Assembly: GCA_002254545.1 (NCBI GenBank)
Contig: NJEA01000003.1
Coordinates: 1 to 38,077 of the forward strand
Origin: Candidatus Aenigmarchaeota archaeon ex4484_224
GTDB lineage: Archaea; Aenigmatarchaeota; Aenigmatarchaeia; CG10238-14; EX4484-224
Length of the DNA stretch: 38,077 bases
Reading direction: 5' to 3'
The position numbers and the translations under genes were made by a program. Below are positions 1,209-36,145 of this stretch, piece by piece; position 1 is the stretch's first letter, and each line of letters starts with the position of its first letter. The notes beneath the pieces were generated by a model. The model saw nothing but the letters and a program-made list of their open reading frames with translations. It made no database searches and was not told the origin of the DNA.

Positions 1209-1279
1209 GCGCCAGTAGTCTAATGGTAGGACACCAGCTTCCCAAGCTGGGAATCCGGGTTCGAATCCCGGCTGGCGCA
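1209..1279 (+). tRNA. tRNA-Gly, anticodon CCC, no encoded CCA
   Basis: GC-rich island in AT-rich DNA; acceptor GCGCCAG/CTGGCGC, anticodon stem CCAGC/GCTGG with loop TTCCCAA, T arm CGGGTTCGAATCCCG, discriminator A. Confidence 0.95.
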
Positions 1280-3394
1280 TTAATTAAAATAAAATCTTCC
1301 AGCATCTTCTTCTTTAATTCTATAAAGTTTTACAAAATATGGAACAAGTTCAGCAATTGCTTCTATATATCTTAATTTTTTATTCCAATCTAATGTTTTA
1401 TCTAAATTTTCTGCCCAATTTTCTAATTGATCATAAAATTTTTCATTCGAGCTATCGAAATAAATTTCCAAAATTTCTCCAATCTCATTAAACAAATTAA
1501 TAACATTTCTGTAAACATCTTCTTCAAATCTTAACGAAGGATATCTTTGAGTTGGTCGAGTTTTTGTTCTTGTAGAGGCAAATATTCCGTAATCCAAAAT
1601 TCCATTTTCAGCAACAGGATATCCTAAATTTTCTAAGATTATTTTTTCATGAATTAATTGATTTCTATCTTTAAGCTTATACAATTCTGGATAAACAAAA
1701 CTATACTTTGCATCTCCTACAACTAACAATTCTTCATTTTCATACTTCAATAAAAAATCAACACGAGCGCTAAAGTAAACTTCTTTTCCTTTCACATTCA
1801 CATAACTTGCTATTTCTCTTTCTGTGAATGCTTTTCTAGGAATTGGATTTCTCGAAATTCCCATTTCTTTCCATATAAAGTGATTTACATAAATTTCATT
1901 AGGATAATAGTTTGGTTCGTGAATAGTTAAATCATGAAATAAGTTTCCGGATTGAATGTATATTCTTTCTTTTTCTGTTGTAATTTTTCTCCAAATCATT
2001 TCTCTATTAAATTCTTTATCTGCAATTGATATCATATCAAGAAGATAGCTAACAATCCTTGCTATTTTAAATGGATTTGAATGATAGCTTGCTCTAAATC
2101 TTAAAAGTTCATTTTCTTTTGGATATTGAATTTGAATGAGAGAGGTAAAGGGCATCAACAACCCAATTTTATCCCATTGAACAATACATAGAGATTCTAT
2201 ATCTATAGTAGGATGGATATTGAAATCTTCTATTGCCTTTTCTAAAATTTCTTTTATTTCATTTTCATTTAATTCTTCAAAATTTTTTCCATATTCTTTT
2301 TTGTAATAAATATTGTAAACAAATGGAAGATATTCTTTCCAAAACCTTTCTCTATCAGTTACCAATTTTCCAAAATAAACATCGAGAGAATTTTTGCTTG
2401 AAACTTTTCTTATAAGCTCGTCATAGTCAACAATTTTATAAGAAAATGATTCTTCATCAAAATATAAACGAGAATTAAATGGTATATCTATTTTTGGAAA
2501 ATAGTTTATAATGTCATCTCTTGTAATTTTTTTCTCAACTCCTAAATTAGAAAGAATGTAAGTAAGAGATTGAGAACAATATGAATACAAATCAACTGGA
2601 CCTGTAATTGGCTTTGAATAAATTCTAATATTTGGCAATTCTACTATTTCCTTTCTCTTTAAAACTTGACCAATCATTTTTGCTATTTGGGAAATCTTTC
2701 TAAGAAGTAGGAAAACTTTAATTTCTCTATTTCGATATAACTCTGAAATTAAAGATAGCAAAGAAGCAAAATTACTTTTAAATTTTTTCCTATTTTCTTT
2801 TCCAATTTTTCTTTCATCTTCCAAAATTTCTTCTTTTGGCCTATTTACCTTCTGAATTTTTTCAAAAAATTTAATCAAATCTTCTATCGCTTCTTCCGAA
2901 TATCCTTTCTTTTCAAGAAGTTTGTAAATAATTCCTAGCTTATATTTTCTATCATCGTATAATTTTGAAAATAAATCTTCTGAAAATCCTCCGTACTTTA
3001 TTTCATTTTTCTTTTTAATTCCTACATGATCATACTCAGACTTTTCCAATAATGATTCTACCTTTCCATTTAAAGGTAAAACTCCTCCATAGCCTGGATA
3101 TCCAGGAACTAAAATTAAAATTCTGGCTTCATTGGGTAAATTATCTCTTAGAATTTTGGTTAAAAGCTGAGAGGGATGATGAGGATCAGAAATTGAATAA
3201 GATGGAAATCTATTTTTTGGATGGGATCGTAGAACAGTCAAGAATGGTTCATATATGATGATTGAATTAATTTCATATGTTGAGAGTAAATCATACAATT
3301 TTTCAAGTTTTGAAGAACGTAAATAGTTAGAATATTTTGATGGAGCTACAATTATCCTTGGAGATGATGAAAACCAATAACTTTTTCTTGACAT
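1280..3394 (-). CDS. Predicted PD-(D/E)XK (RecB/McrC-like) nuclease, ~704 aa
   Basis: C-terminal motif ARVDFLL-(x9)-VVGDAKYS (D...DxK core) followed by helix NQLIHEKIILENLG resembling the Q-containing helix of RecB-type nucleases; N-terminal ~500 aa not recognised. Track start is TTG 3397; ATG at 3394 is more likely. Confidence 0.6.
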   Translation of the reverse strand: MSRKSYWFSSSPRIIVAPSKYSNYLRSSKLEKLYDLLSTYEINSIIIYEPFLTVLRSHPKNRFPSYSISDPHHPSQLLTKILRDNLPNEARILILVPGYPGYGGVLPLNGKVESLLEKSEYDHVGIKKKNEIKYGGFSEDLFSKLYDDRKYKLGIIYKLLEKKGYSEEAIEDLIKFFEKIQKVNRPKEEILEDERKIGKENRKKFKSNFASLLSLISELYRNREIKVFLLLRKISQIAKMIGQVLKRKEIVELPNIRIYSKPITGPVDLYSYCSQSLTYILSNLGVEKKITRDDIINYFPKIDIPFNSRLYFDEESFSYKIVDYDELIRKVSSKNSLDVYFGKLVTDRERFWKEYLPFVYNIYYKKEYGKNFEELNENEIKEILEKAIEDFNIHPTIDIESLCIVQWDKIGLLMPFTSLIQIQYPKENELLRFRASYHSNPFKIARIVSYLLDMISIADKEFNREMIWRKITTEKERIYIQSGNLFHDLTIHEPNYYPNEIYVNHFIWKEMGISRNPIPRKAFTEREIASYVNVKGKEVYFSARVDFLLKYENEELLVVGDAKYSFVYPELYKLKDRNQLIHEKIILENLGYPVAENGILDYGIFASTRTKTRPTQRYPSLRFEEDVYRNVINLFNEIGEILEIYFDSSNEKFYDQLENWAENLDKTLDWNKKLRYIEAIAELVPYFVKLYRIKEEDAGRFYFN

Positions 3395-3446
3395 CAATTT
3401 AAACCTAAAAAATTAAACTTAAATAAATTTTTACAAATCATTAATC

Positions 3447-5486
3447 ATGGAAAATCTTTATTTTCCACTTTTCATTCAAAGAGTTCCTAACAATGAAATT
3501 CATCTTCTTCTTTCTTCATTTAACAACAAACTAGTTGTGGGAAAGAGCTCATTGTCTAGAAAAGCCAAAAACTTAAGTTTAGTTCAACAACTTTTTATAA
3601 CTAATAAAATTCTTCCTTACACTTTTTTTATTCTAAAAGACAACAAATTAATTCCAATTACGGATCCTTATTTCCTACAAATTTTTAGGAATAAAGTTCT
3701 TAACAATTTTATTACATATGATATAGAAGTTTTAAATCCTAATAGACTTCCAGATCCAAATCTTGGTGATAAAATACTTTCTATTTCTTTAGTATCTAAT
3801 GAACCAATTTTATTAAGCTCTTCTCGTGAAAATTTTGAAATCAAATCTTATAAAATAGCTATTACACAAAAAGGAATTTATTATTTAGAAAATGAAGTTT
3901 TGAAATTAGTTCCTATTAGCTTAGATGAAAAAAGAATGGTAGATTTATCTTTTGAAGCACTTTCCCAATTTTTTGTAAATGTTGGATTTAATAATTTATT
4001 TTTCGATAACTATTACATTAAAGAAAGAACTAATGTAGAAATTATCCGAACAATAGATATTGTTCATCCATATCCTTCATCAAAACCTCAATTTTCAAAA
4101 ATGAAAAAAGAAGAAAGAGAAAGATTTAATCAAATTAGATCGAGAAGAAGAGGAAGAAAATTTCTACCTACAATAAATATAGATTTATTTCCTATTTCTC
4201 AAAATATAGATTTTTCATCGAGAAAGCTAAAAAGTATAGCAGACTCTCTTTATATGGAATACTATCCATTAGAAATCAAAGATTTGGCAAAAATTTCTAA
4301 AGAAGATATGGAGAAAATTGCAAAATATAACATTAGTGATAGCGAAATAACTTTGAAAATTTACCATGAATTTTTTCCAATTTTTGACTATATTCTAGAA
4401 AATGGAATTGGAAACTTTGAATACATAGTTAATAGAAAAAGGGTTGAAGAAAATTTTTTGCTTAGATATATAGCAGAAAAAAGTAAATGGAATTTGGGAA
4501 AAATTGATAAAATTTTGGGAAAAATTAATAGACTGAAAATAAATCCTAAAAAAATAGAATTTTCACCAACTTCTACTTCTCCTGGAAAATATTTAAATGG
4601 ATATCTTGCCTATCTTCCAACCTTAATTTTTGAGCTTTATAAAAATGAATTTGAAAAATCTTATCCTAAAGAAATTTTTGAAATTAGTAATAAAATTTTG
4701 GATGATTTAAAGAGAATTCGATATTCAAGTAGAGGAGATTATTTGCTAAACTCATTTTTACAAAACATTTTAAATCGATATGTCAAGCTTATGTTTTCTT
4801 CTAATGAAAAATTATTTAAAAAAATTGAAAGAAGAATAAAAAGTTTGATTAAAAAATATTTTAGATATCTTCATTATTCCTCACCAAAACTCTTAGTCTT
4901 TAACGAAATTCCAAAAGAACTAAAAAACCTAAGTTCAACTTTCATTCCATTGGAAAAATATTACATTTTTAAAAACGGTAAAAAGAGTCCATTAGTTCTT
5001 GGAAAAGTTAAAGGTTATGAATTAATTTTAGGATCTCAAATTTCCCCTCATTTAAGAAGAAATTACGGTAGATATCCTTATCAATTCATGAATTATTTTT
5101 ACCATGATATATTTTCTATTGTTAAAGAAGATAAAGATCCTAAACTTTTAGAAAAAATGCTTGAAAAAATTGAAAGGTATGAAAGAAATGAGAAAGAGAT
5201 TAATCTTAATGAAATAGCAATCATTTTAACAAAAACAAAAGATTTAGAGGAATATACAAGAATGGATCCTTTCTTGAGAAATTTAGATTTAAATAAATAT
5301 GAATATGGAGAGGAGATAAGAGTTTTAATCGTTAGAGATAATCTTGAAGAGGAACCTTATTTTGCTCCTTTGGACAAGCAAATTATCAATTCTATAGATT
5401 GGGATTGTTATAAGGAATTAGCTAAAGATTTAATTAAATTCAAAAATTCTTATAGAACGATAACCTTGGATTCTTTTATTCAATAA
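3447..5486 (+). CDS. Inactivated family-B DNA polymerase homologue with apparently intact 3'-5' exonuclease domain
   Basis: ExoI-like ITYDIEV, ExoII-like FNNLFFDNYYIKER, ExoIII-like YNISDSEITLKIY; thumb-like GKVKGYELILGS and C-terminal EINLNEIAIILTKTKDLEEYTRMDPF...YGEEIRVLIVRD match archaeal PolB architecture; motif A (DFxSLYPS) and motif C (DTD) positions lack catalytic Asp (YLPTLIFELY; HYSSPKLLVFN). Confidence 0.75.
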   Translation: MENLYFPLFIQRVPNNEIHLLLSSFNNKLVVGKSSLSRKAKNLSLVQQLFITNKILPYTFFILKDNKLIPITDPYFLQIFRNKVLNNFITYDIEVLNPNRLPDPNLGDKILSISLVSNEPILLSSSRENFEIKSYKIAITQKGIYYLENEVLKLVPISLDEKRMVDLSFEALSQFFVNVGFNNLFFDNYYIKERTNVEIIRTIDIVHPYPSSKPQFSKMKKEERERFNQIRSRRRGRKFLPTINIDLFPISQNIDFSSRKLKSIADSLYMEYYPLEIKDLAKISKEDMEKIAKYNISDSEITLKIYHEFFPIFDYILENGIGNFEYIVNRKRVEENFLLRYIAEKSKWNLGKIDKILGKINRLKINPKKIEFSPTSTSPGKYLNGYLAYLPTLIFELYKNEFEKSYPKEIFEISNKILDDLKRIRYSSRGDYLLNSFLQNILNRYVKLMFSSNEKLFKKIERRIKSLIKKYFRYLHYSSPKLLVFNEIPKELKNLSSTFIPLEKYYIFKNGKKSPLVLGKVKGYELILGSQISPHLRRNYGRYPYQFMNYFYHDIFSIVKEDKDPKLLEKMLEKIERYERNEKEINLNEIAIILTKTKDLEEYTRMDPFLRNLDLNKYEYGEEIRVLIVRDNLEEEPYFAPLDKQIINSIDWDCYKELAKDLIKFKNSYRTITLDSFIQ

Positions 5487-5536: not shown

Positions 5537-5902
5537 ATGGCTAAAAGAACTGGACCAACGAATCCAAGATTAAAAGAATTGATTGAAATGCTTAGAATGC
5601 AATATAAAAAAACAAGAAAACCAATTTGGAGAGATTTGGCTGAAAGATTGGAAAAGCCAACTAGACAAAGAATTGAAGTTAATTTGAAAAGAATTGAAAG
5701 ATATGCAAAAGAAGGAGAAACAATTGTTGTTCCTGGAGTTGTTCTTGGAGATGGAAATTTAACAAAAAAATTAACAATCTTTGCTTGGAGATTTTCTAGC
5801 CAAGCAAGAAAAAAAATTGAAAAAGCCAATGGAAAAGCTTTAAGTTTAAAAGATTTAATTAAATTAAACCCTGAAGGAAAAAATTTGAGATTAATGGGAT
5901 AA
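5537..5902 (+). CDS. rpl18e: 50S ribosomal protein L18e
   Basis: MAKRTGPTNPRLKELIEMLR...VPGVVLGDGNLTKKLTIFAWRFSSQARKKI; AAGGTG Shine-Dalgarno upstream; operon with L13 and S9. Confidence 0.96.
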   Translation: MAKRTGPTNPRLKELIEMLRMQYKKTRKPIWRDLAERLEKPTRQRIEVNLKRIERYAKEGETIVVPGVVLGDGNLTKKLTIFAWRFSSQARKKIEKANGKALSLKDLIKLNPEGKNLRLMG

Positions 5903-5903
5903 C

Positions 5904-6320
5904 ATGTTAATTTATGATGCAGAAAATCAAATTGCTGGAAGGCTTGCAACCATAATTGCTAAAAAATTGCTAGAAGGGGAAAGAATTATTGTTGTTAATG
6001 CGGAAAAGGCAATAATTTCTGGAGACCCAAAAATGGTAATTAGAAAGTTTAGAGAAAAGAGAGAAAGAGGAGATCCTCATAAAGGTCCTTTCTATCCTAG
6101 AAAGCCAGATAGAATTTTTAGAAGAATTGTAAGAGGTATGCTTCCTTGGAAGAAGAAAAAAGGAAGAGATGCTTATAAAAGATTGAAAGTTTATGTTGGA
6201 ATTCCTGAAGAATTGAAAGATAAAAAAGATAAATTTATTAAAACAAAAGAAGCTGATGCAAATAAATTGAGAACTAAATATATAAGTTTAGGAGAAATTT
6301 CAAAGGCTTTGGGTGGATAA
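5904..6320 (+). CDS. rpl13: 50S ribosomal protein L13 (uL13)
   Basis: IYDAENQIAGRLATIIAKKLLEGERIIVVNAEKAIISG...RIFRRIVRGMLPWKKKKGRDAYKRLKVYVGIP. Confidence 0.96.
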   Translation: MLIYDAENQIAGRLATIIAKKLLEGERIIVVNAEKAIISGDPKMVIRKFREKRERGDPHKGPFYPRKPDRIFRRIVRGMLPWKKKKGRDAYKRLKVYVGIPEELKDKKDKFIKTKEADANKLRTKYISLGEISKALGG

Positions 6321-6321
6321 A

Positions 6322-6783
6322 ATGCCAAGAAAGAAAAAGAAGAAAGAAGAAAGTAAGAAAAAGGTTAAGCTAGACTATATAATAGTTACTGGAAAAAGAA
6401 AAACTGCAATAGCCAGAGCTAAAGTTGAGAAAGGAAGTGGAAGAGTAATAATTAATTCCAAACCTTTAGAAGTTTGGGGAACTGAAGTTGCGAGAATGTT
6501 CGTTGCTGAGCCTTTATATTTAGCTGGAGATGCTGCAAAAAAGTTAGATTTTTATGTTAATGTAAGGGGTGGAGGAGTTTTTGGCCAAGCAGAAGCTATT
6601 AGAATGGCTATTGCAAAGGGAATTGTTGAATTTACTAGAGATGAAAAGTTAAAACAAAAATTTTTGGAATATGATAGAAATTTGCTTGTTTTTGATCCTA
6701 GAAGAAATGAACCTCATCATGCAAGTGGAAGGGGAGCAAGTAAAAGAGGATCACGAAGACACCGACAGAGATCAAAGAGATAA
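6322..6783 (+). CDS. rps9: 30S ribosomal protein S9 (uS9)
   Basis: VTGKRKTAIARAKVEKGSGRVIIN...GGGVFGQAEAIRMAIAKGIV...GRGASKRGSRRHRQRSKR; ATG at 6322 preferred over track GTG 6313. Confidence 0.96.
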   Translation: MPRKKKKKEESKKKVKLDYIIVTGKRKTAIARAKVEKGSGRVIINSKPLEVWGTEVARMFVAEPLYLAGDAAKKLDFYVNVRGGGVFGQAEAIRMAIAKGIVEFTRDEKLKQKFLEYDRNLLVFDPRRNEPHHASGRGASKRGSRRHRQRSKR

Positions 6784-6955: not shown

Positions 6956-7537
6956 TCAAATTTCTTTTATCAAATTTTCAAGTAAATCAATTGCTTCATT
7001 AAGATTTTTAACTCTCTTTACATTTTCTTTTTCTTCTATACATTTATTCCAAGGTCTATCATAAACTAAAACTAAAAGATTAGAATCTCTTAGTTCTTGT
7101 ATCAAATTTGGATTATCATCAATAACAATTTCAAAATTTTCAGAATCTTTCAAATAAACCTTAGATTTGCTTTCAGAAAGTGATATAAAGTTATCATAAG
7201 GAATTTCATGATAACTCAACCATGCTTGCATCTCATTTTTGTAACCATTTCTATTTGTTACTATCGAAACTTCATACCCAAGCTTTTTAATTCTTGAAAT
7301 TTTTTTAGAAAGATTATTTTCTGTTGGAAAAATTTCCATCCATCTTTCTTTCCAATATTTGCTAGTATCTTCTAAAAACTTCCTCCAATTTAACCACTCA
7401 TATTCTTTGCTTTCAAAATACCATTGATCGATATTTTCTAAAGAAGCGTTTGTATTAAATTCTTTATTCATTTGTTCGATCCAATATCTATGTATATCTA
7501 CTAAAACACCCTCCATATCCAATCCAAACTTTTTCAT
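6956..7537 (-). CDS. HAD-superfamily phosphatase, 5'(3')-deoxyribonucleotidase-like
   Basis: MKKFGLDMEGVLVDIHRYW motif I; VSIVTNRNGY motif II; IVIDDNPNLI motif III/IV region. Confidence 0.75.
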   Translation of the reverse strand: MKKFGLDMEGVLVDIHRYWIEQMNKEFNTNASLENIDQWYFESKEYEWLNWRKFLEDTSKYWKERWMEIFPTENNLSKKISRIKKLGYEVSIVTNRNGYKNEMQAWLSYHEIPYDNFISLSESKSKVYLKDSENFEIVIDDNPNLIQELRDSNLLVLVYDRPWNKCIEEKENVKRVKNLNEAIDLLENLIKEI

Positions 7538-14235: not shown

Positions 14236-16149
14236 TTATCTAAGTTCTTCTTTCTTCCAAACTTCAGCTTTTCCTTTCTCAACAGCTGCTTTTCCCAAAA
14301 ATGTATGCTTTTCTTCAGGAACAACAAGCATACCTTGCAATGGATCAAAAGCATGCTCTTTAATTATTGCCATTTGTCTTTCAATTGCTCCAATTTCTCT
14401 ACTAGATAATCCAAAAAATTCTGGTGGCAATTTTTCTGGTGGTATATCTTTTTCTAACATCCTTGCAACAGTTTTTAAAACCATTATGCTTTTTTTGAAA
14501 GGATCTTGTCCTCCTCCTCTTTCAAAAATCAAATAAACTTTATGATATTTTCCCAAACCTGCTTGCCTCAAAATCCAAAACAATTTATAATAATTGATAT
14601 CCCCAAATTCTAATGGTAAGTGTGGATGTAAAGGATTTGGATAATTAGAGTGGATAGAAAGAATATATTTCCCAGCATCTGGATGATCTTTTACAAACAT
14701 GTTTAATTCTTCCCAAGGATCAACTCCATGTGTAGCTATATGCTCAAAATCAATTGTCATAAAGATTTTGTTCGCATGGGTATAACCTTTTTCTTCTAAA
14801 TATTTTCTTGCGGCTTTTACTACTGCTAAAATTTGAGAAGGTCTCCATAAATTATATCTTCCAGCATACTCAGGACTTCTTGAATCTGGAACTTCTACTG
14901 TGATCATCACATTTTCAGCATTCTTTTTAAGTTCTTCAATTTCTTTTCTTGCAATTTCTTCATCTTTTTCAACACTTCTAACTTCCTCTTCTATTATTTT
15001 CTGAATACTTTCCTTTTCTTTTCCTTCTAGCCATTTAACCAAATTTTCTAAATGACCTAAAAGCATTTGTCCAGCAACTAAAGCATAGAAAAATTCTTTA
15101 AAAACTTCAGCTTCTGCCTTACCAGCCTCCACATAATTTTCCCAAACATATTCCAAAAAGCTTTGTTCTTTTTTTCCATTTTGCTCATATTCATTCAAAA
15201 GTTTTTTAATTAAAGAATTATATCTTGAGAGTTTGGTAAGTTCTTGCCAAATATAATTTCTTTCTCTATTAAACCAAACATAATGAGCAATTATATTGAA
15301 AGTATCCCAAAGCCTTGCCAATCTTTCTTTCATTCTCCATTTAAAATGTTCATTGCTAGACAAAAATTCTTCTAAAGTTTCTTTTATAGCCTCTTTGTTA
15401 GCATTCTCAATTTTTTTAATCTCCTCTTTATATTCTTGCTCGGTTAACACTCCTCTAGCAACCAATTCAGCCAAGAGAGTTGTTCCTAATTCAGCAGGGT
15501 TAGGAGAATGTCTAATTCTCTCAAGATTTCCTAAATCTATATTCTTTCTTCTTCCTAATTCTTCCAAAATTCTAATAATCTTTGCTCTTTGTTTTTCATC
15601 ATAAATTAAAATTCTTTCTCTTGGCAAAATATATCCAGCCCAATTTTCTTTATACCCATATCTTTCAATAAACCACTTTCTAAGCTTTTCATCTTTATTT
15701 AACAAAAAAGAAATGAATAAACCATCTGGAGAGCAAGGAATTATTTCAAGCTTATGACTAGTATAAGTAATTAATTCCGGCCAAAAGTGCAAACAAGAAT
15801 GAAAAAGAACATATTTAGCTCCTATAAAAATTCCTGATTTTAGAGATAATCTTGCATGATTTTGAGCTTGAGCGTAATCACTAATTTCAGGAATTTCAAA
15901 AGGAATCGTTAAGCTACCATGCAAAAGCAAAGTAATTCCTTGCTTGTTTGCTAAATATCTAATTTCTTTGCTTTCTGTATATTGAATTTCATGAGCAACA
16001 TCCAAAGCAATTTCTGTTGCATTAACTCCTCTTGTCAAAATATATCCAACTTTTCTTAAAGTCGTTGCTAAACTTTCATCTCTAGCTGCGTAATAAATTC
16101 CTGTTGAGCTTGCAACTTGAAATTGCTTTAATTGAAATTCTTCTTCCAT
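14236..16149 (-). CDS. EndoIV/xylose-isomerase-like TIM-barrel protein with large helical insertion
   Basis: Ordered putative metal ligands LLLHGSL, VLFHSCLHF, MTIDFEHIATHG, LSIHSNY, HPHLPLEFGDINYY, VYLIFERGGG. Confidence 0.5.
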   Translation of the reverse strand: MEEEFQLKQFQVASSTGIYYAARDESLATTLRKVGYILTRGVNATEIALDVAHEIQYTESKEIRYLANKQGITLLLHGSLTIPFEIPEISDYAQAQNHARLSLKSGIFIGAKYVLFHSCLHFWPELITYTSHKLEIIPCSPDGLFISFLLNKDEKLRKWFIERYGYKENWAGYILPRERILIYDEKQRAKIIRILEELGRRKNIDLGNLERIRHSPNPAELGTTLLAELVARGVLTEQEYKEEIKKIENANKEAIKETLEEFLSSNEHFKWRMKERLARLWDTFNIIAHYVWFNRERNYIWQELTKLSRYNSLIKKLLNEYEQNGKKEQSFLEYVWENYVEAGKAEAEVFKEFFYALVAGQMLLGHLENLVKWLEGKEKESIQKIIEEEVRSVEKDEEIARKEIEELKKNAENVMITVEVPDSRSPEYAGRYNLWRPSQILAVVKAARKYLEEKGYTHANKIFMTIDFEHIATHGVDPWEELNMFVKDHPDAGKYILSIHSNYPNPLHPHLPLEFGDINYYKLFWILRQAGLGKYHKVYLIFERGGGQDPFKKSIMVLKTVARMLEKDIPPEKLPPEFFGLSSREIGAIERQMAIIKEHAFDPLQGMLVVPEEKHTFLGKAAVEKGKAEVWKKEELR

Positions 16150-16159
16150 TTTTATCTAC

Positions 16160-17917
16160 CTACAAAGGAACTTTAAAATGACTATTCAATAATCCAATTA
16201 TTTCTAACCAATATATAGCTGTAACATTAAAGTAAAACTTTGTAAATCTATCTTTGAATGCATGTTCATAAGGAGTTTTTGCTGCGAAAAAAGCAATCTG
16301 CCATCCAAGATTATTTAAAATAGAAGAAAATTTTTGAATTGTTTTTTCAACTTTATATGTTTTTTTAATTTTTCCAACCTCTTCACTACTTTCTAAAGAC
16401 ATTTGTTCAAAACCACCATTTTGGAAAATTAATGGATATTCGCTAGATAAAACCTTTGAAATTTCTACTTCTTTTCCTTCAAGCAAACCAAATTCTCCCA
16501 AAAGCAAACCAATTTCTTTTTCAAGTTTTTTATCTATTGCTTTTAATTCAAGCATATGACCCAAAATTATATTTTGAGTTTTAAGATAAGCTTTAAAAGT
16601 ATTTATTTCAAAATCTTCTAACTCTGCACCATTTGGCAGTTTAATCATCGTTCTCATGATTGGTATATCTAGAAAAACAAAGTAAGGAGAAAATGGCCAA
16701 ATTTCATGTGTTTGAGTTTCTTCAATTTTGTAAGTATAATAAGAGCTCAATTCCTTAATTGCTTCATAAACGTCATAAGGAGTAATTATAACCTGATATT
16801 TCTTTTCAATTCTTTTAACAATATCTCTTAAAACAGAATCTACTGCTTTAGGAATTGGCAAAGCATTAATTTCATTCTTAAAGGTTTCTCCTTTTGCTTC
16901 AACGATTTTTTTAATATATTCAATTTCTTTTTTTGTAAATCCTGCTTTTTCTAAAGAAATTGTTGTAGAAGGAGATTCTGTTGGAGGTCTGTATTTTTCA
17001 TAGGGCAAAATTGGCCTCCATGCCCAAATTCTCATAAAATCTATGCTGAAAGCTTGGGCATCTGGTCTAAAAAATAACTTTTTTGTAGTAGCTCTCAAAT
17101 TTGGGCTTTCTAAAGCATCAGAAATCATTTTATACCTTGCAATTAATGGTTTAACCATTTTCTTATATTCCTCAACAGAAGCTCTCCTAGCATTAACTAA
17201 ACTTAAAAGCCTTTGATATCTATTTTTAACAGTTTCAAAAAACATTTTTTTCCATTCAACGAAAAGTTTATTTTTTGTCGCTAAAATAACTCCTTCAGCT
17301 TCAGTAACTTGCAATTTCTCAGCAATTTTTTTAGGATCGATATCTTCATCATTTAACTTCATAAAATCTGAAATTATAGTTGGCCATCTAATTGCTATAG
17401 ATCTCATAGAAATTCCTTCTCCAGTATGAACATCTACCATATCTATAAAAATCGATCTTAAAGTTTGATTTCCTTCTAAAATTAATTTCTTTCCTTCTTC
17501 TTCTTTTCCTTCTTTTATTAACTTTTTTCCTTCCTCTATTTTATTGAAATAATCCATATATTCTTTGTATTTTCTTAAATCATGTTCACCTAATTCCAAA
17601 TCAGAAATTGCATTTGCAATGCTTGCTAAATGCGCTTTAATTTTATTTTGAAGTTCTTCTCTTTGAGAAATTGTTAAATCAAAATAAGGTTTATTTACTG
17701 GAGAAACGTATATCCATTCATCAAGCTTATATCTAACAAATCCTCTTTTTGGCAAATAAGTTGAAATTTTGTAGTAAGCTGCTGTTCCAGAACCAGGTGG
17801 TCCAGTATAATTTAATAAAATGTTTTGGTTTAAAGGAACGACATTAATGCCAGTACCTGGCTTTAAATCACCACTCCAATCAGGAAATGGACCTTCTGGA
17901 TATATATCTCTTTCCAT
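16160..17917 (-). CDS. Uncharacterised 585-aa protein
   Basis: Long ORF in a tight operon, coding-like composition; no family recognised. Confidence 0.75.
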   Translation of the reverse strand: MERDIYPEGPFPDWSGDLKPGTGINVVPLNQNILLNYTGPPGSGTAAYYKISTYLPKRGFVRYKLDEWIYVSPVNKPYFDLTISQREELQNKIKAHLASIANAISDLELGEHDLRKYKEYMDYFNKIEEGKKLIKEGKEEEGKKLILEGNQTLRSIFIDMVDVHTGEGISMRSIAIRWPTIISDFMKLNDEDIDPKKIAEKLQVTEAEGVILATKNKLFVEWKKMFFETVKNRYQRLLSLVNARRASVEEYKKMVKPLIARYKMISDALESPNLRATTKKLFFRPDAQAFSIDFMRIWAWRPILPYEKYRPPTESPSTTISLEKAGFTKKEIEYIKKIVEAKGETFKNEINALPIPKAVDSVLRDIVKRIEKKYQVIITPYDVYEAIKELSSYYTYKIEETQTHEIWPFSPYFVFLDIPIMRTMIKLPNGAELEDFEINTFKAYLKTQNIILGHMLELKAIDKKLEKEIGLLLGEFGLLEGKEVEISKVLSSEYPLIFQNGGFEQMSLESSEEVGKIKKTYKVEKTIQKFSSILNNLGWQIAFFAAKTPYEHAFKDRFTKFYFNVTAIYWLEIIGLLNSHFKVPL

Positions 17918-32713: not shown

Positions 32714-35700
32714 TTACTTTCCAACAATTTTCCTAATCTTTTCTATGCTTTCAGGATTTGCCAAAGTGGATATATCTCCAAGCTCTTGTCCAATAAGCAT
32801 TCTTTTCAAAATCCTTCTCATTATTTTTCCACTTCTTGTTTTTGGTAAATCTTCAACAAAATAAACTTTATATGGTTTTGCAATAGGACCAATTTCTTTA
32901 ACAACTTGCTGAATTATTTCTTCTTTCATTTTTTCATTTGGCCTTCCGAATCTTAAAACCACAAAAGCAATTGGAACTTCTCCTTTAATTTCATGTGGAG
33001 CTCCAACAATTGCACATTCATTTACAGCATAATGCTTAGTAATTGCATTTTCTAGCTCAGCAGTTGAAAGTCTATGACCAGCAACTTTTAAAACATCATC
33101 AAGCCTTCCTGTAATCTTTATCAAACCATTCTTATCTTTAAAAGCTCCATCGCTTGTATAATAAATTTCTTCTCCAAACCGAGACCAATAAGTTTTGAAA
33201 TATCTTTCTGGATTTCTATAAACTCCTCTTAGCATTCCAGGAGCAAAAGGCTTTAAAATAACTAAGCTTCCTTCTTTCTTAGCTTTTTTAATTGGCTTTC
33301 CTTTTTCGTCCAAAATTTCAAATTTAACTGGAGGAAATGGTAAGCCAGCATAAGTTGGTTTGAATGGACCAATTCCTGGCAAAGAAGTTAGTAAAACTCC
33401 CCCGGTTTCTGTTTGCCACCAAGTATCAACGATTGGACATCTTTCTTTTCCAACTTCTTTGAAAAACCAATACCAAGCTTCTTCATTTATCGGTTCTCCA
33501 ACAGAACCAAGTAACCTTAAAGTTTTAAAGGAGAATTTTCTAACAACTTGTCCATCATACTTTTCAAACATTCTTACAGCAGTTGGAGCAGTATAGAAAA
33601 TTGTTACTCCATATTTTTCCATTATTTGAGCCCATCTTTCGGGAGTTGGCCAATCTAAAGCTCCTTCATAAATTATAAAAGTTGCACCATTTAGCAAAGG
33701 ACCATAACAAGAATAAGTATGACCAGTAATCCAGCCTATATCTGCTGTTGACCAAAAAATATCATTATCATGCAAATCAAAAATCCATTTTGCAGTAATA
33801 TAGGCTTGAACCATATAGCCACCAACTGCATGTACTATGCCCTTAGGCTTACCTGTTGTATTATGAACAAAGAAACCATTAGCAATGTATGAGCTGTTTG
33901 AAAATGAAGTTATATCATAAATAAACCTTTCTTCAAATTTTCCTACCTCAACTTTCTTTACTCTAACAAAAAATGCCTCTGCATTTATTATCTTCAAAAT
34001 TTTTTCTTTCCATTCTTTTATCTTTCTTAAAACCTCTCTTTCCCTTTCTTCTAATAATTTCTCTATTTTCTTCTTAAATTTTGAAGAAGGTTCATACAAA
34101 AATTTATGAACTGAATTTTTTGAATATCCAGTCTTTTTTGCAATTTCCTCTAAACTTAATCTTAAAAGTAAAACCTTTTTATTAATTCTTTTTTCTCCCA
34201 AAATTCTTTTTTCGATCAAATCTAGAAAATCTAAAATTTTAACTAAATTCTTTCTTTTGATTTTCCTATATCCAAGTTTATATCCATCCATTCCTAAACT
34301 ATGAATTAATTTTTTCGGAAGTTTTACTTCTTTCAAAACTTCTTTTAAAAGTTTATCAATCTTTAAAATTTCTATATTAGTAGATCCTTTTCTTTCAATT
34401 TCCAACAATTTTTCAAGTTTTAATTTCTTCTTCTTATCGTTAAACCCAATTTTTTCATAAAATCTTTTGAGATTTTCCTTGTCAGAAATTCTTAAGGAAA
34501 ATACTTTTATACGGTAAATTTTATCTTTAAATTTTGTTTTAGCATTTCTTTCATAATAACTTGAAAGAATTCCAAGCCTTAAAAGTAATAGCTTAATCTG
34601 TTCTATCAAAACCTTGCTAGTGCTAACAATTTTAACACTACTCTTACTTACAGTACCTTCAGCATCGAAGAATCCTCTTATAAATCCTCTTATTATTTCA
34701 TTCTTACTAACTTGAATCTTTTGAGGGACTTCTCTTTCCTTACTTTTCTTACAAATTTCTGGAAAGTTTACCTTAATAAATTCTTTTACTAACTTAGAAC
34801 AAAACAAAAGTCTTTGTCTATCTTCTTTTTTTATTTTTCCTTCGGTACCAAATACCTTCCTTATAATTTTATTGTAATGCTTTAGATTTTCTACATCCTT
34901 ATCAGTTAAAACTAAACAATTTTCTGAAAAGTTTCCATCTCCAGCAAAATACCCAATTAATTCCGCCAAATTTTCGTCCAATCTTCTAGGAAGCTTTACT
35001 TTTTTAATTATCTTTTTAACTTTAGGAATTTCAAGAAAAACTTCTTTTCCTTCTATCTTTGGAATTGGTAAAATTAGAACATCTCCCCCTTCAATTTGAG
35101 ATGCCTCTTTTTCTTCTATTTCTAAATTTTCATTCAAAACAAACAAAGGATGAGAAGGAGTTAATTCTATCATTCCAAATGATGTATAAATTTTGTAAAG
35201 GGGTAATGGCCAAAAATAGGAATGTAAATCTTTTATTCCATCAACTTTCGAAGTTAGCTTATTCAAATCAAAACTTAAAATTCCTTCTTTTTTATTAAGT
35301 TCTTTTATTGGTAAAATCTTACCAGAAGATGTTTGAACTAAAGTATCTCCCTTTACACATCCACTGGTATAGAGAATAAAAGCAATGTCTTCAGCATCAA
35401 GTTTTTTTGGTTCACAATAATCTTCTTCATTTTCAATCAATTCATGGTACCAATAATCCCTTCCTTTTTTCATTTTAACTTTATTGTTTGCCCTTTTTAC
35501 AACAATTACTTTCTTAACTTTTGTTCCCTTAATTCCTTCATCAGCTTTTTCTTTCAAGTTAATCAATTTTCCTCTCCTATAATAACCATCTGCAGTAATC
35601 AAAAACTTTGCTTGAGTATCATTTAATCTAATTTGCAATGCTTTTGAACTAAAAGCTGAAAAAACTACTGTATGAATAGCTCCTATTCTTGCACAAGCAA

Positions 35701-36145
35701 GCATAGAAATTATAACTTCTGGGATCATTGGTAAATAAATTCCAACAACATCTCCTTTTTTAACTCCTAGCTTCTTTAAAGCATTAGCAAGTTTATTAAC
35801 TTCTTTATATAGTTGATAGTAAGTATAAATCCTTGGTCTTTCATTTGTTGGCTCTGGCTCCCAAATAAAAGCAACTTTATTTTTTCTTCCAAGTTCAAAA
35901 TTTCTTTCAAAAATGTTATAAGTAATATTCGTTTTGCCTCCAACAAACCAATGAAAGTAAGGAGGTTTATGAACAAATATTTTATTCCATTTTTTAAACC
36001 AAACCAATTCCTTTGCAACTTTTTCCCAAAATTTAATTGGATTTTTTTGAGCTTCTTTGTAAATTCTAGGAGAAGATATCCAAGCTTTTTTTCTTAAAGA
36101 TTTAGAAGGATAAAACAAATTCCCCTTTTTAATCATTTTTTCCAT
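32714..36145 (-). CDS. acs: Acetyl-CoA synthetase (AMP-forming) interrupted in frame by an intein
   Basis: N-extein WFVGGKTNITYN...DAEDIAFILYTSG; C-extein TTGKPKGIVHAVGGYMVQAY...DTWWQTETGG...SDGAFKDKNGLIKITGRLDDVLKVAGHRLSTAELE...PKTRSGKIMRRILKR. Confidence 0.95.
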   Translation of the reverse strand: MEKMIKKGNLFYPSKSLRKKAWISSPRIYKEAQKNPIKFWEKVAKELVWFKKWNKIFVHKPPYFHWFVGGKTNITYNIFERNFELGRKNKVAFIWEPEPTNERPRIYTYYQLYKEVNKLANALKKLGVKKGDVVGIYLPMIPEVIISMLACARIGAIHTVVFSAFSSKALQIRLNDTQAKFLITADGYYRRGKLINLKEKADEGIKGTKVKKVIVVKRANNKVKMKKGRDYWYHELIENEEDYCEPKKLDAEDIAFILYTSGCVKGDTLVQTSSGKILPIKELNKKEGILSFDLNKLTSKVDGIKDLHSYFWPLPLYKIYTSFGMIELTPSHPLFVLNENLEIEEKEASQIEGGDVLILPIPKIEGKEVFLEIPKVKKIIKKVKLPRRLDENLAELIGYFAGDGNFSENCLVLTDKDVENLKHYNKIIRKVFGTEGKIKKEDRQRLLFCSKLVKEFIKVNFPEICKKSKEREVPQKIQVSKNEIIRGFIRGFFDAEGTVSKSSVKIVSTSKVLIEQIKLLLLRLGILSSYYERNAKTKFKDKIYRIKVFSLRISDKENLKRFYEKIGFNDKKKKLKLEKLLEIERKGSTNIEILKIDKLLKEVLKEVKLPKKLIHSLGMDGYKLGYRKIKRKNLVKILDFLDLIEKRILGEKRINKKVLLLRLSLEEIAKKTGYSKNSVHKFLYEPSSKFKKKIEKLLEEREREVLRKIKEWKEKILKIINAEAFFVRVKKVEVGKFEERFIYDITSFSNSSYIANGFFVHNTTGKPKGIVHAVGGYMVQAYITAKWIFDLHDNDIFWSTADIGWITGHTYSCYGPLLNGATFIIYEGALDWPTPERWAQIMEKYGVTIFYTAPTAVRMFEKYDGQVVRKFSFKTLRLLGSVGEPINEEAWYWFFKEVGKERCPIVDTWWQTETGGVLLTSLPGIGPFKPTYAGLPFPPVKFEILDEKGKPIKKAKKEGSLVILKPFAPGMLRGVYRNPERYFKTYWSRFGEEIYYTSDGAFKDKNGLIKITGRLDDVLKVAGHRLSTAELENAITKHYAVNECAIVGAPHEIKGEVPIAFVVLRFGRPNEKMKEEIIQQVVKEIGPIAKPYKVYFVEDLPKTRSGKIMRRILKRMLIGQELGDISTLANPESIEKIRKIVGK
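33860..35359 (-). mobile_element. 500-aa intein with LAGLIDADG homing endonuclease in acetyl-CoA synthetase
   Basis: Begins CVKGDTLVQTSSGKILPIKEL; block B-like ELTPSHPLFV; LIGYFAGDGNF and IRGFFDAEGTVS endonuclease motifs; ends FIYDITSFSNSSYIANGFFVHN before Thr(+1). Codon arithmetic 262+500+381 = 1143 aa matches the ORF length. Confidence 0.95.

What the first reader, a model, noticed from the sequence alone, without database searches (positions are those of the whole stretch)
1280..5486. Divergent two-gene module: PD-(D/E)XK nuclease plus inactivated PolB
Seen: a ~704-aa protein with a RecB/McrC-like C-terminal nuclease motif (ARVDFLL...VVGDAKYS) and the PolB-like gene start about 52 bp apart in opposite directions, wedged between a tRNA-Gly and the ribosomal L18e operon. 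Inference: a nuclease paired with a catalytically dead, exonuclease-retaining polymerase could be a repair or anti-invader module acting on DNA ends. Co-function is not proven by adjacency.
Basis: inference. Interest (0 to 1): 0.72.

Follow-up and report, generated by a model that had tools for sequence, protein, structure and literature searches.

The report
Orphan nuclease–dead polymerase gene pair
A tiny archaeon carries two back-to-back genes, one for a DNA-cutting enzyme and one for a DNA polymerase relative that has lost its copying site but kept its 3'-end-chewing site; the pair looks inserted at one spot, but no relatives were found that would show the two work together.

Summary
NUC (1280-3394, -, 704 aa) and POLX (3447-5486, +, 679 aa) are real genes, start 52 bp apart, and lie between tRNA-Gly(CCC) and L18e. 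POLX is a family-B polymerase derivative: all five 3'-5' exonuclease residues are kept and its thumb matches a PolB profile above shuffled controls. The palm is unrecognisable, with no YxDTD, SLYPS or KxxxNSxYG. NUC's C-terminus matches a Cas4/RecB-type PD-(D/E)XK nuclease profile (score 36 against a shuffled maximum of 15.5) and lacks Cas4's cysteine cluster. McrC kinship could not be tested. The phylum is probably Aenigmarchaeota. In 9 of 20 relatives fetched, tRNA-Gly(CCC) lies within about 1.4 kb of L18e without either gene, so the pair looks inserted in this lineage. No homologue of either protein was found in about 154 phylum genomes, phages or plasmids, nor in seed-limited viral and GTDB scans. 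The "module" therefore rests on one genome. My best guess is an acquired DNA-end-processing pair, defence or repair. Co-function is unproven. POLX is the interesting part: polymerase site gone, exonuclease site intact, the reverse of Pol alpha/zeta and unlike PolB2, where both are disrupted.

The parts
1209..1279 (+). tRNA-Gly (CCC), left border of the insertion
   Evidence: ARAGORN; lies just upstream of L18e in nine of 20 relatives without the two genes
1280..3394 (-). NUC, 704-aa protein, N-terminal ~495 residues of unknown function
   Evidence: ORF; no Pfam/NCBIfam/PADLOC/PHROG match above noise
1460..1786 (-). Cas4/RecB-type PD-(D/E)XK nuclease core of NUC (residues ~537-645; D546, D561-A-K563, Q579)
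   Evidence: hhalign against 19 Cas4/RecB-like proteins of the phylum: score 36.5, E 4e-5; 20 shuffles at most 15.5
3395..3446 (.). 52-bp divergent intergenic region; A/T-rich TATA-like stretch 3418-3432 lies about 24 bp from the NUC start and 15-29 bp from the POLX start
   Evidence: sequence; promoter function is inference
3447..5486 (+). POLX, 679-aa family-B DNA polymerase derivative
   Evidence: ORF; phmmer to archaeal PolB structures E 0.003; alignment A5
3717..3728 (+). Exo I motif YDIE (D92, E94)
   Evidence: invariant in alignment with 14 PolBs
3984..4007 (+). Exo II motif GFNNLFFD (D187)
   Evidence: invariant in alignment with 14 PolBs
4326..4340 (+). Exo III motif YNISD (Y294, D298)
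   Evidence: invariant in alignment with 14 PolBs
4482..5048 (+). Region where the polymerase palm should be (residues ~346-534): no motif A, B or C
   Evidence: no significant profile match; motif scan empty
5049..5411 (+). PolB-type thumb (residues 535-655)
   Evidence: hhalign score 46.9, E 7e-5 with full POLX; 31.2 against shuffled maximum 22.3 with the thumb alone
5457..5480 (+). C-terminal PCNA-binding-like motif TITLDSFI, at the place of SLESFF in the native PolB; weak
   Evidence: the loose pattern also occurs at 3 of 29 other protein ends in the window
5537..6783 (+). L18e-L13-S9 operon, right border of the insertion

Best explanation
An acquired two-gene DNA-end-processing pair. NUC carries a Cas4/RecB-type PD-(D/E)XK nuclease domain behind a long N-terminal part of unknown function (probably a DNA- or partner-binding arm). 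POLX is a PolB that keeps an intact 3'-5' exonuclease and the DNA-gripping thumb but can no longer polymerise, so it would bind a 3' end and trim it without refilling. The two genes entered together between tRNA-Gly and L18e and are read from one divergent promoter region. Together they would most likely nick and resect foreign or damaged DNA. Shown: gene structure, retained exonuclease residues, lost palm motifs, nuclease-domain match, single insertion site. Inferred: enzymatic activity, joint entry, co-function and the choice between defence and repair.
For: All exonuclease residues retained; exonuclease fold in the model, pLDDT about 70-89 in residues 90-175 and Foldseek matches to PolB structures at E about 4e-7 (the input alignment contained PolBs, so this is not independent). 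Thumb match significant, palm not. Nuclease domain match. In nine relatives tRNA-Gly(CCC) lies within about 1.4 kb of L18e with neither gene between. Both genes have the lowest codon fit of the window's ORFs over 200 codons, 0.335 and 0.331, and agree with each other. The genome has an ordinary PolB elsewhere, so POLX is an extra copy.
Against: No second example of the pair, or of either gene, anywhere searched. No defence gene, Cas1, integrase or repeat beside them: no Cas1 in the genome, no PADLOC match, no att-like repeat. Codon fit is low but not an outlier; a 190-aa gene scores lower and low expression would give the same. The NUC model is unusable (mean pLDDT 35).
Confidence: 0.37

Rival explanations
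1. Leftover or domesticated replication genes of a mobile element that integrated beside tRNA-Gly: the element's PolB lost its palm and its nuclease was kept.
For: tRNA-adjacent position is a common integration site; PolB genes are carried by archaeal mobile elements (PMC4104785); very long POLX branch (8.24 changes per site); unusual codon use.
Against: No integrase, att-like repeat or other element gene; both ORFs intact; all exonuclease residues kept, which decay would not preserve; no match in phage, plasmid or viral collections.
Confidence: 0.25
2. POLX is a housekeeping editing factor: a PCNA-bound 3'-5' exonuclease that proofreads in trans or clears stalled 3' ends, and NUC is a neighbour of separate function.
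For: Intact exonuclease plus thumb; PCNA-box-like C-terminus at the position of the native PolB's; the order lacks PolD DP2 and this assembly shows no zinc-tailed B6 PolB, so replication proteins here are already unusual.
Against: Housekeeping factors are rarely restricted to one family of an order; POLX is absent from about 154 phylum genomes. The PCNA-box pattern is loose. The missing B6 gene may lie in the missing fifth of the assembly.
Confidence: 0.18
3. Two unrelated orphan genes that happen to lie side by side in a variable gap.
For: Other relatives carry different small ORFs in the same tRNA-Gly to L18e gap (G018 181 aa, G026 348 aa, G011 two ORFs), so the gap takes up unrelated genes; no repeat of the pairing elsewhere.
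Against: Head-to-head starts 52 bp apart, both predicted nucleases acting on DNA, similar codon fit.
Confidence: 0.2

Closest known systems
Archaeal/bacterial PolB2 (Dpo2), 'inactivated' family B polymerases (PMC2527604, PMC4104785)
   Same: A PolB paralogue with disrupted polymerase motifs, present beside an active PolB
   Different: [quoted passage not shown] POLX keeps the whole exonuclease site, lacks motif C altogether and has a nuclease neighbour
C-terminal half of eukaryotic Pol epsilon (PMC2669801) and the inactive exonuclease domains of Pol alpha/zeta (PMC7544198)
   Same: Part of a PolB retained for a non-polymerase role, or one of the two active sites lost
   Different: Pol epsilon's C-terminal module is inactivated and fused to an active polymerase; in alpha/zeta it is the exonuclease that is dead, the reverse of POLX
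Cas4 / solo-Cas4 and RecB-type PD-(D/E)XK nucleases (PMC5704561)
   Same: Core D...D-x-K...Q arrangement and following helix and strand
   Different: NUC has no C-terminal cysteine cluster (only C273 and C403), a ~500-residue N-terminal part, and no Cas1 in the genome
RecB-like nuclease fused to a DEDD exonuclease (TM0106-type proteins, from my own knowledge)
   Same: A RecB-type nuclease combined with a DnaQ/RNase-H-like exonuclease; POLX's exonuclease also grazes PF13482 RNase_H_2 (E 0.011, below cut-off)
   Different: There the exonuclease is a small stand-alone domain in the same chain, not a PolB derivative on a separate gene

Membership tests
Family B DNA polymerase (derivative) | 3'-5' exonuclease motifs Exo I-III | tested here: met
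   D92, E94, D187, Y294, D298 invariant with 14 PolBs
Family B DNA polymerase (derivative) | Palm motifs A (DxxSLYPS), B (KxxxNSxYG), C (YxDTD) | tested here: not met
   No palm profile match; motif scan empty; so POLX is a derivative, not a polymerase
Family B DNA polymerase (derivative) | C-terminal thumb | tested here: met
   hhalign 31.2 against shuffled maximum 22.3 (thumb alone), 46.9 (full)
PolB2 (inactivated PolB) | Exo I/III disrupted, one Asp kept in motif C | tested here: not met
   Exo motifs intact, motif C absent; compared with PMC7544198
PolB2 (inactivated PolB) | Neighbourhood with arCOG07300 and inactivated RadA | tested here: not met
   Neighbours are tRNA-Gly, NUC, L18e
PD-(D/E)XK nuclease, Cas4/RecB type | D ... 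D/E-x-K core with following Q helix | tested here: met
   D546, D561-A-K563, Q579; profile score 36.5 against shuffled maximum 15.5
Cas4 proper (PF01930) | C-terminal four-cysteine Fe-S cluster and link to Cas1/Cas2 | tested here: not met
   Two scattered cysteines only; no Cas1 in the assembly; no PF01930 match
McrC / DUF2357-PDDEXK_7 | Match to PF10117 or PF04411; McrB GTPase partner | tested here: inconclusive
   No match by hmmscan; no family members in the phylum to build a profile comparison; PF04411 rang in no control; no GTPase neighbour next to the pair
Known anti-phage defence system | Match to a described defence protein family | tested here: not met
   PADLOC best E 0.029, a partial match
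Two-gene module | Recurrent adjacency in unrelated contexts | tested here: inconclusive
   No homologue of either gene in the collections searched; other phyla could not be searched at full sensitivity

The most novel reading that the evidence does not exclude
An undescribed DPANN defence or DNA-repair system in which a PolB stripped of synthesis but with live 3'-5' exonuclease works as an end-recognition and resection subunit with a Cas4/RecB-type nuclease, from one divergent promoter.
Probability: 0.2. Interest if true: 0.75.

Novelty: new variant of a known kind. Interest (0 to 1): 0.45.

Why it matters
Among the PolB derivatives described in the papers read here, both active sites are disrupted (PolB2, Pol epsilon C-terminus) or the exonuclease is dead (Pol alpha/zeta). 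An editing-only PolB would show the opposite route and give a simple biochemical test: does a PolB without a palm active site still bind and trim 3' ends? If the nuclease is its partner, it would be a new kind of two-enzyme DNA-end system in DPANN archaea, a group in which CRISPR-Cas and restriction-modification are underrepresented (PMC12988326).

Tried and rejected
Homologue searches for both proteins: BLAST in 58 and about 154-158 phylum genomes; tblastn in phages and plasmids; five viral-contig scans; two genome-contig scans. All were negative. POLX hits in relatives that I read (L005-L008, L097) are ordinary PolBs with YxDTD. That POLX is a recently decayed copy of the phylum's zinc-tailed B6 PolB was rejected: it matches the ~820-aa PolB group better (E 7e-5 against 0.012), though its tree position is unresolved. 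Att-like repeats at the insertion: none. Cas1 link: none. The NUC structure model (pLDDT 35) and its Foldseek hits are meaningless.

Full report
OBSERVATION. Both ORFs are present as described. NUC runs 1280-3394 on the minus strand from an ATG (a TTG codon precedes it), 704 aa; POLX runs 3447-5486 on the plus strand, 679 aa; the starts are 52 bp apart. Such lengths do not arise by chance at this composition (about 1e-26 for 679 codons) and both genes have the codon-position G+C gradient of coding DNA. tRNA-Gly(CCC) at 1209-1279 abuts the NUC stop codon, and L18e-L13-S9 follow POLX. An A/T-rich TATA-like stretch at 3418-3432 sits about 24 bp from the NUC start and 15-29 bp from the POLX start; that it serves as a shared promoter is inference.

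POLX. It has no Pfam, NCBIfam or PADLOC match, but phmmer finds archaeal PolB structures at E 0.003 over the Exo III end of the exonuclease and PHROGs gives a phage 'DNA polymerase exonuclease subunit' at E 0.004. Aligned with 14 PolBs of the same phylum, residues D92, E94 (Exo I), D187 (Exo II), Y294 and D298 (Exo III) are invariant. Profile comparison with the phylum's ~820-aa PolBs is significant for the thumb (score 31.2 alone, 46.9 for full POLX; shuffled sequences at most about 24), while the palm region is indistinguishable from shuffled sequence. No YxDTD, SLYPS or KxxxNSxYG motif occurs. An AlphaFold model from that alignment is good only in the exonuclease (block means about 70-89 in residues 90-175) and matches PolB exonucleases in the PDB at E about 4e-7. 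This is not independent evidence, since the alignment contained PolBs. The genome also has an ordinary 819-aa PolB with YGDTD on another contig, so POLX is an extra, very divergent copy (branch 8.24 changes per site, position unresolved). Its last residues, TITLDSFI, resemble the PCNA box at the same place in the native PolB (SLESFF), but the loose pattern also occurs at 3 of 29 other protein ends in the window, so this is weak.

NUC. No family library recognises it. Its C-terminal region (residues ~537-645) aligns by hhalign with 19 Cas4/RecB-like nucleases of the phylum at score 36.5 (E 4e-5); 20 shuffled versions reach at most 15.5. The catalytic pattern is D546, D561-A-K563, Q579. It lacks the C-terminal cysteine cluster of Cas4 (only C273 and C403), and the assembly has no Cas1. 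McrC kinship could not be tested: almost no McrC or PDDEXK_7 members exist in the phylum, and PF04411 rang in no control genome either. The N-terminal ~495 residues are unassigned; the single-sequence model is unusable (mean pLDDT 35).

LINEAGE AND CONTEXT. The phylum carries two PolBs, one of ~900 aa with a C-terminal CxxC...CxxC zinc motif, and the order lacks PolD DP2 (0 of 34, while controls ring). This is the pattern published for Aenigmarchaeota, whose B6 PolB has replaced DP2 (PMC7544198). The assignment is therefore likely but inferred. In this genome (80% complete) the B6 PolB was not found.

INSERTION. Among 20 order relatives whose L18e region was read, tRNA-Gly(CCC) lies in the same orientation upstream of L18e at about 60 to 1,400 bp in nine (G003, G004, G009, G012, G013, G015, G018, G025, G026), with neither gene between them. 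In this genome the gap is 4,257 bp and holds exactly NUC and POLX. Several relatives hold other small genes in the same gap, so it tolerates insertions. No att-like repeat flanks the pair. NUC and POLX have the lowest codon fit of the window's ORFs over 200 codons (0.335 and 0.331; the rest 0.356-0.497), which suits, but does not prove, a shared foreign origin.

CO-OCCURRENCE. BLAST in 58 relatives and about 154-158 phylum genomes found no homologue of NUC (one stray 50-residue match at E 0.004) and, for POLX, matches to ordinary PolBs. tblastn in 50,697 phage and 72,556 plasmid records found nothing. Scans of IMG/VR and of the GTDB genome set found nothing. Those scans depend on short seeds, two of them per scan for alignment queries, and in three I steered the seeds with invented variant rows; they would miss most distant relatives. 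Other archaeal phyla could not be searched at full sensitivity.

INTERPRETATION. Best reading: an acquired pair of DNA-end nucleases, in which POLX binds and trims 3' ends without being able to refill them and NUC cuts. Defence and repair remain open. Rivals are a domesticated mobile-element remnant, a PCNA-linked editing factor beside an unrelated nuclease, and chance neighbours. No evidence here shows that the two proteins act together.

COMPARISON. POLX fails the definition of PolB2: PolB2 has lost Exo I and Exo III and keeps one aspartate of motif C (PMC2527604, PMC7544198), whereas POLX keeps all exonuclease residues and lacks motif C. It is also the reverse of Pol alpha and zeta, whose exonuclease is dead. 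NUC works like a Cas4/RecB-type nuclease by its core but is not Cas4 by its missing cysteines. The library searches returned no description of such a pair; that library lacks most subscription papers.

Noticed in passing
window 32714-36145 (-): Acetate-CoA ligase gene interrupted by a large intein with splicing and LAGLIDADG domains (residues ~278-762).
   Followed up: partly
G000 assembly (this genome): The zinc-tailed ~900-aa B6 PolB found in most relatives was not found here, nor PolD DP2; only one intact PolB (819 aa). It may lie in the missing fifth of the assembly.
   Followed up: partly
tRNA-Gly to L18e gap in L040, L044, L050, L051, L059: The same gap holds other, unrelated small ORFs in several relatives, so it may be a favoured insertion spot.
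   Followed up: no
window 14236-17917 (-): Two long adjacent ORFs (637 and 585 aa) with no good family match; the first has a sub-threshold AP_endonuc_2 (TIM barrel) hit.
   Followed up: no
window 6956-7537 (-): An NT5C-type 5'-nucleotidase lies between S9 and RpoK in the ribosomal/RNA polymerase cluster.
   Followed up: no
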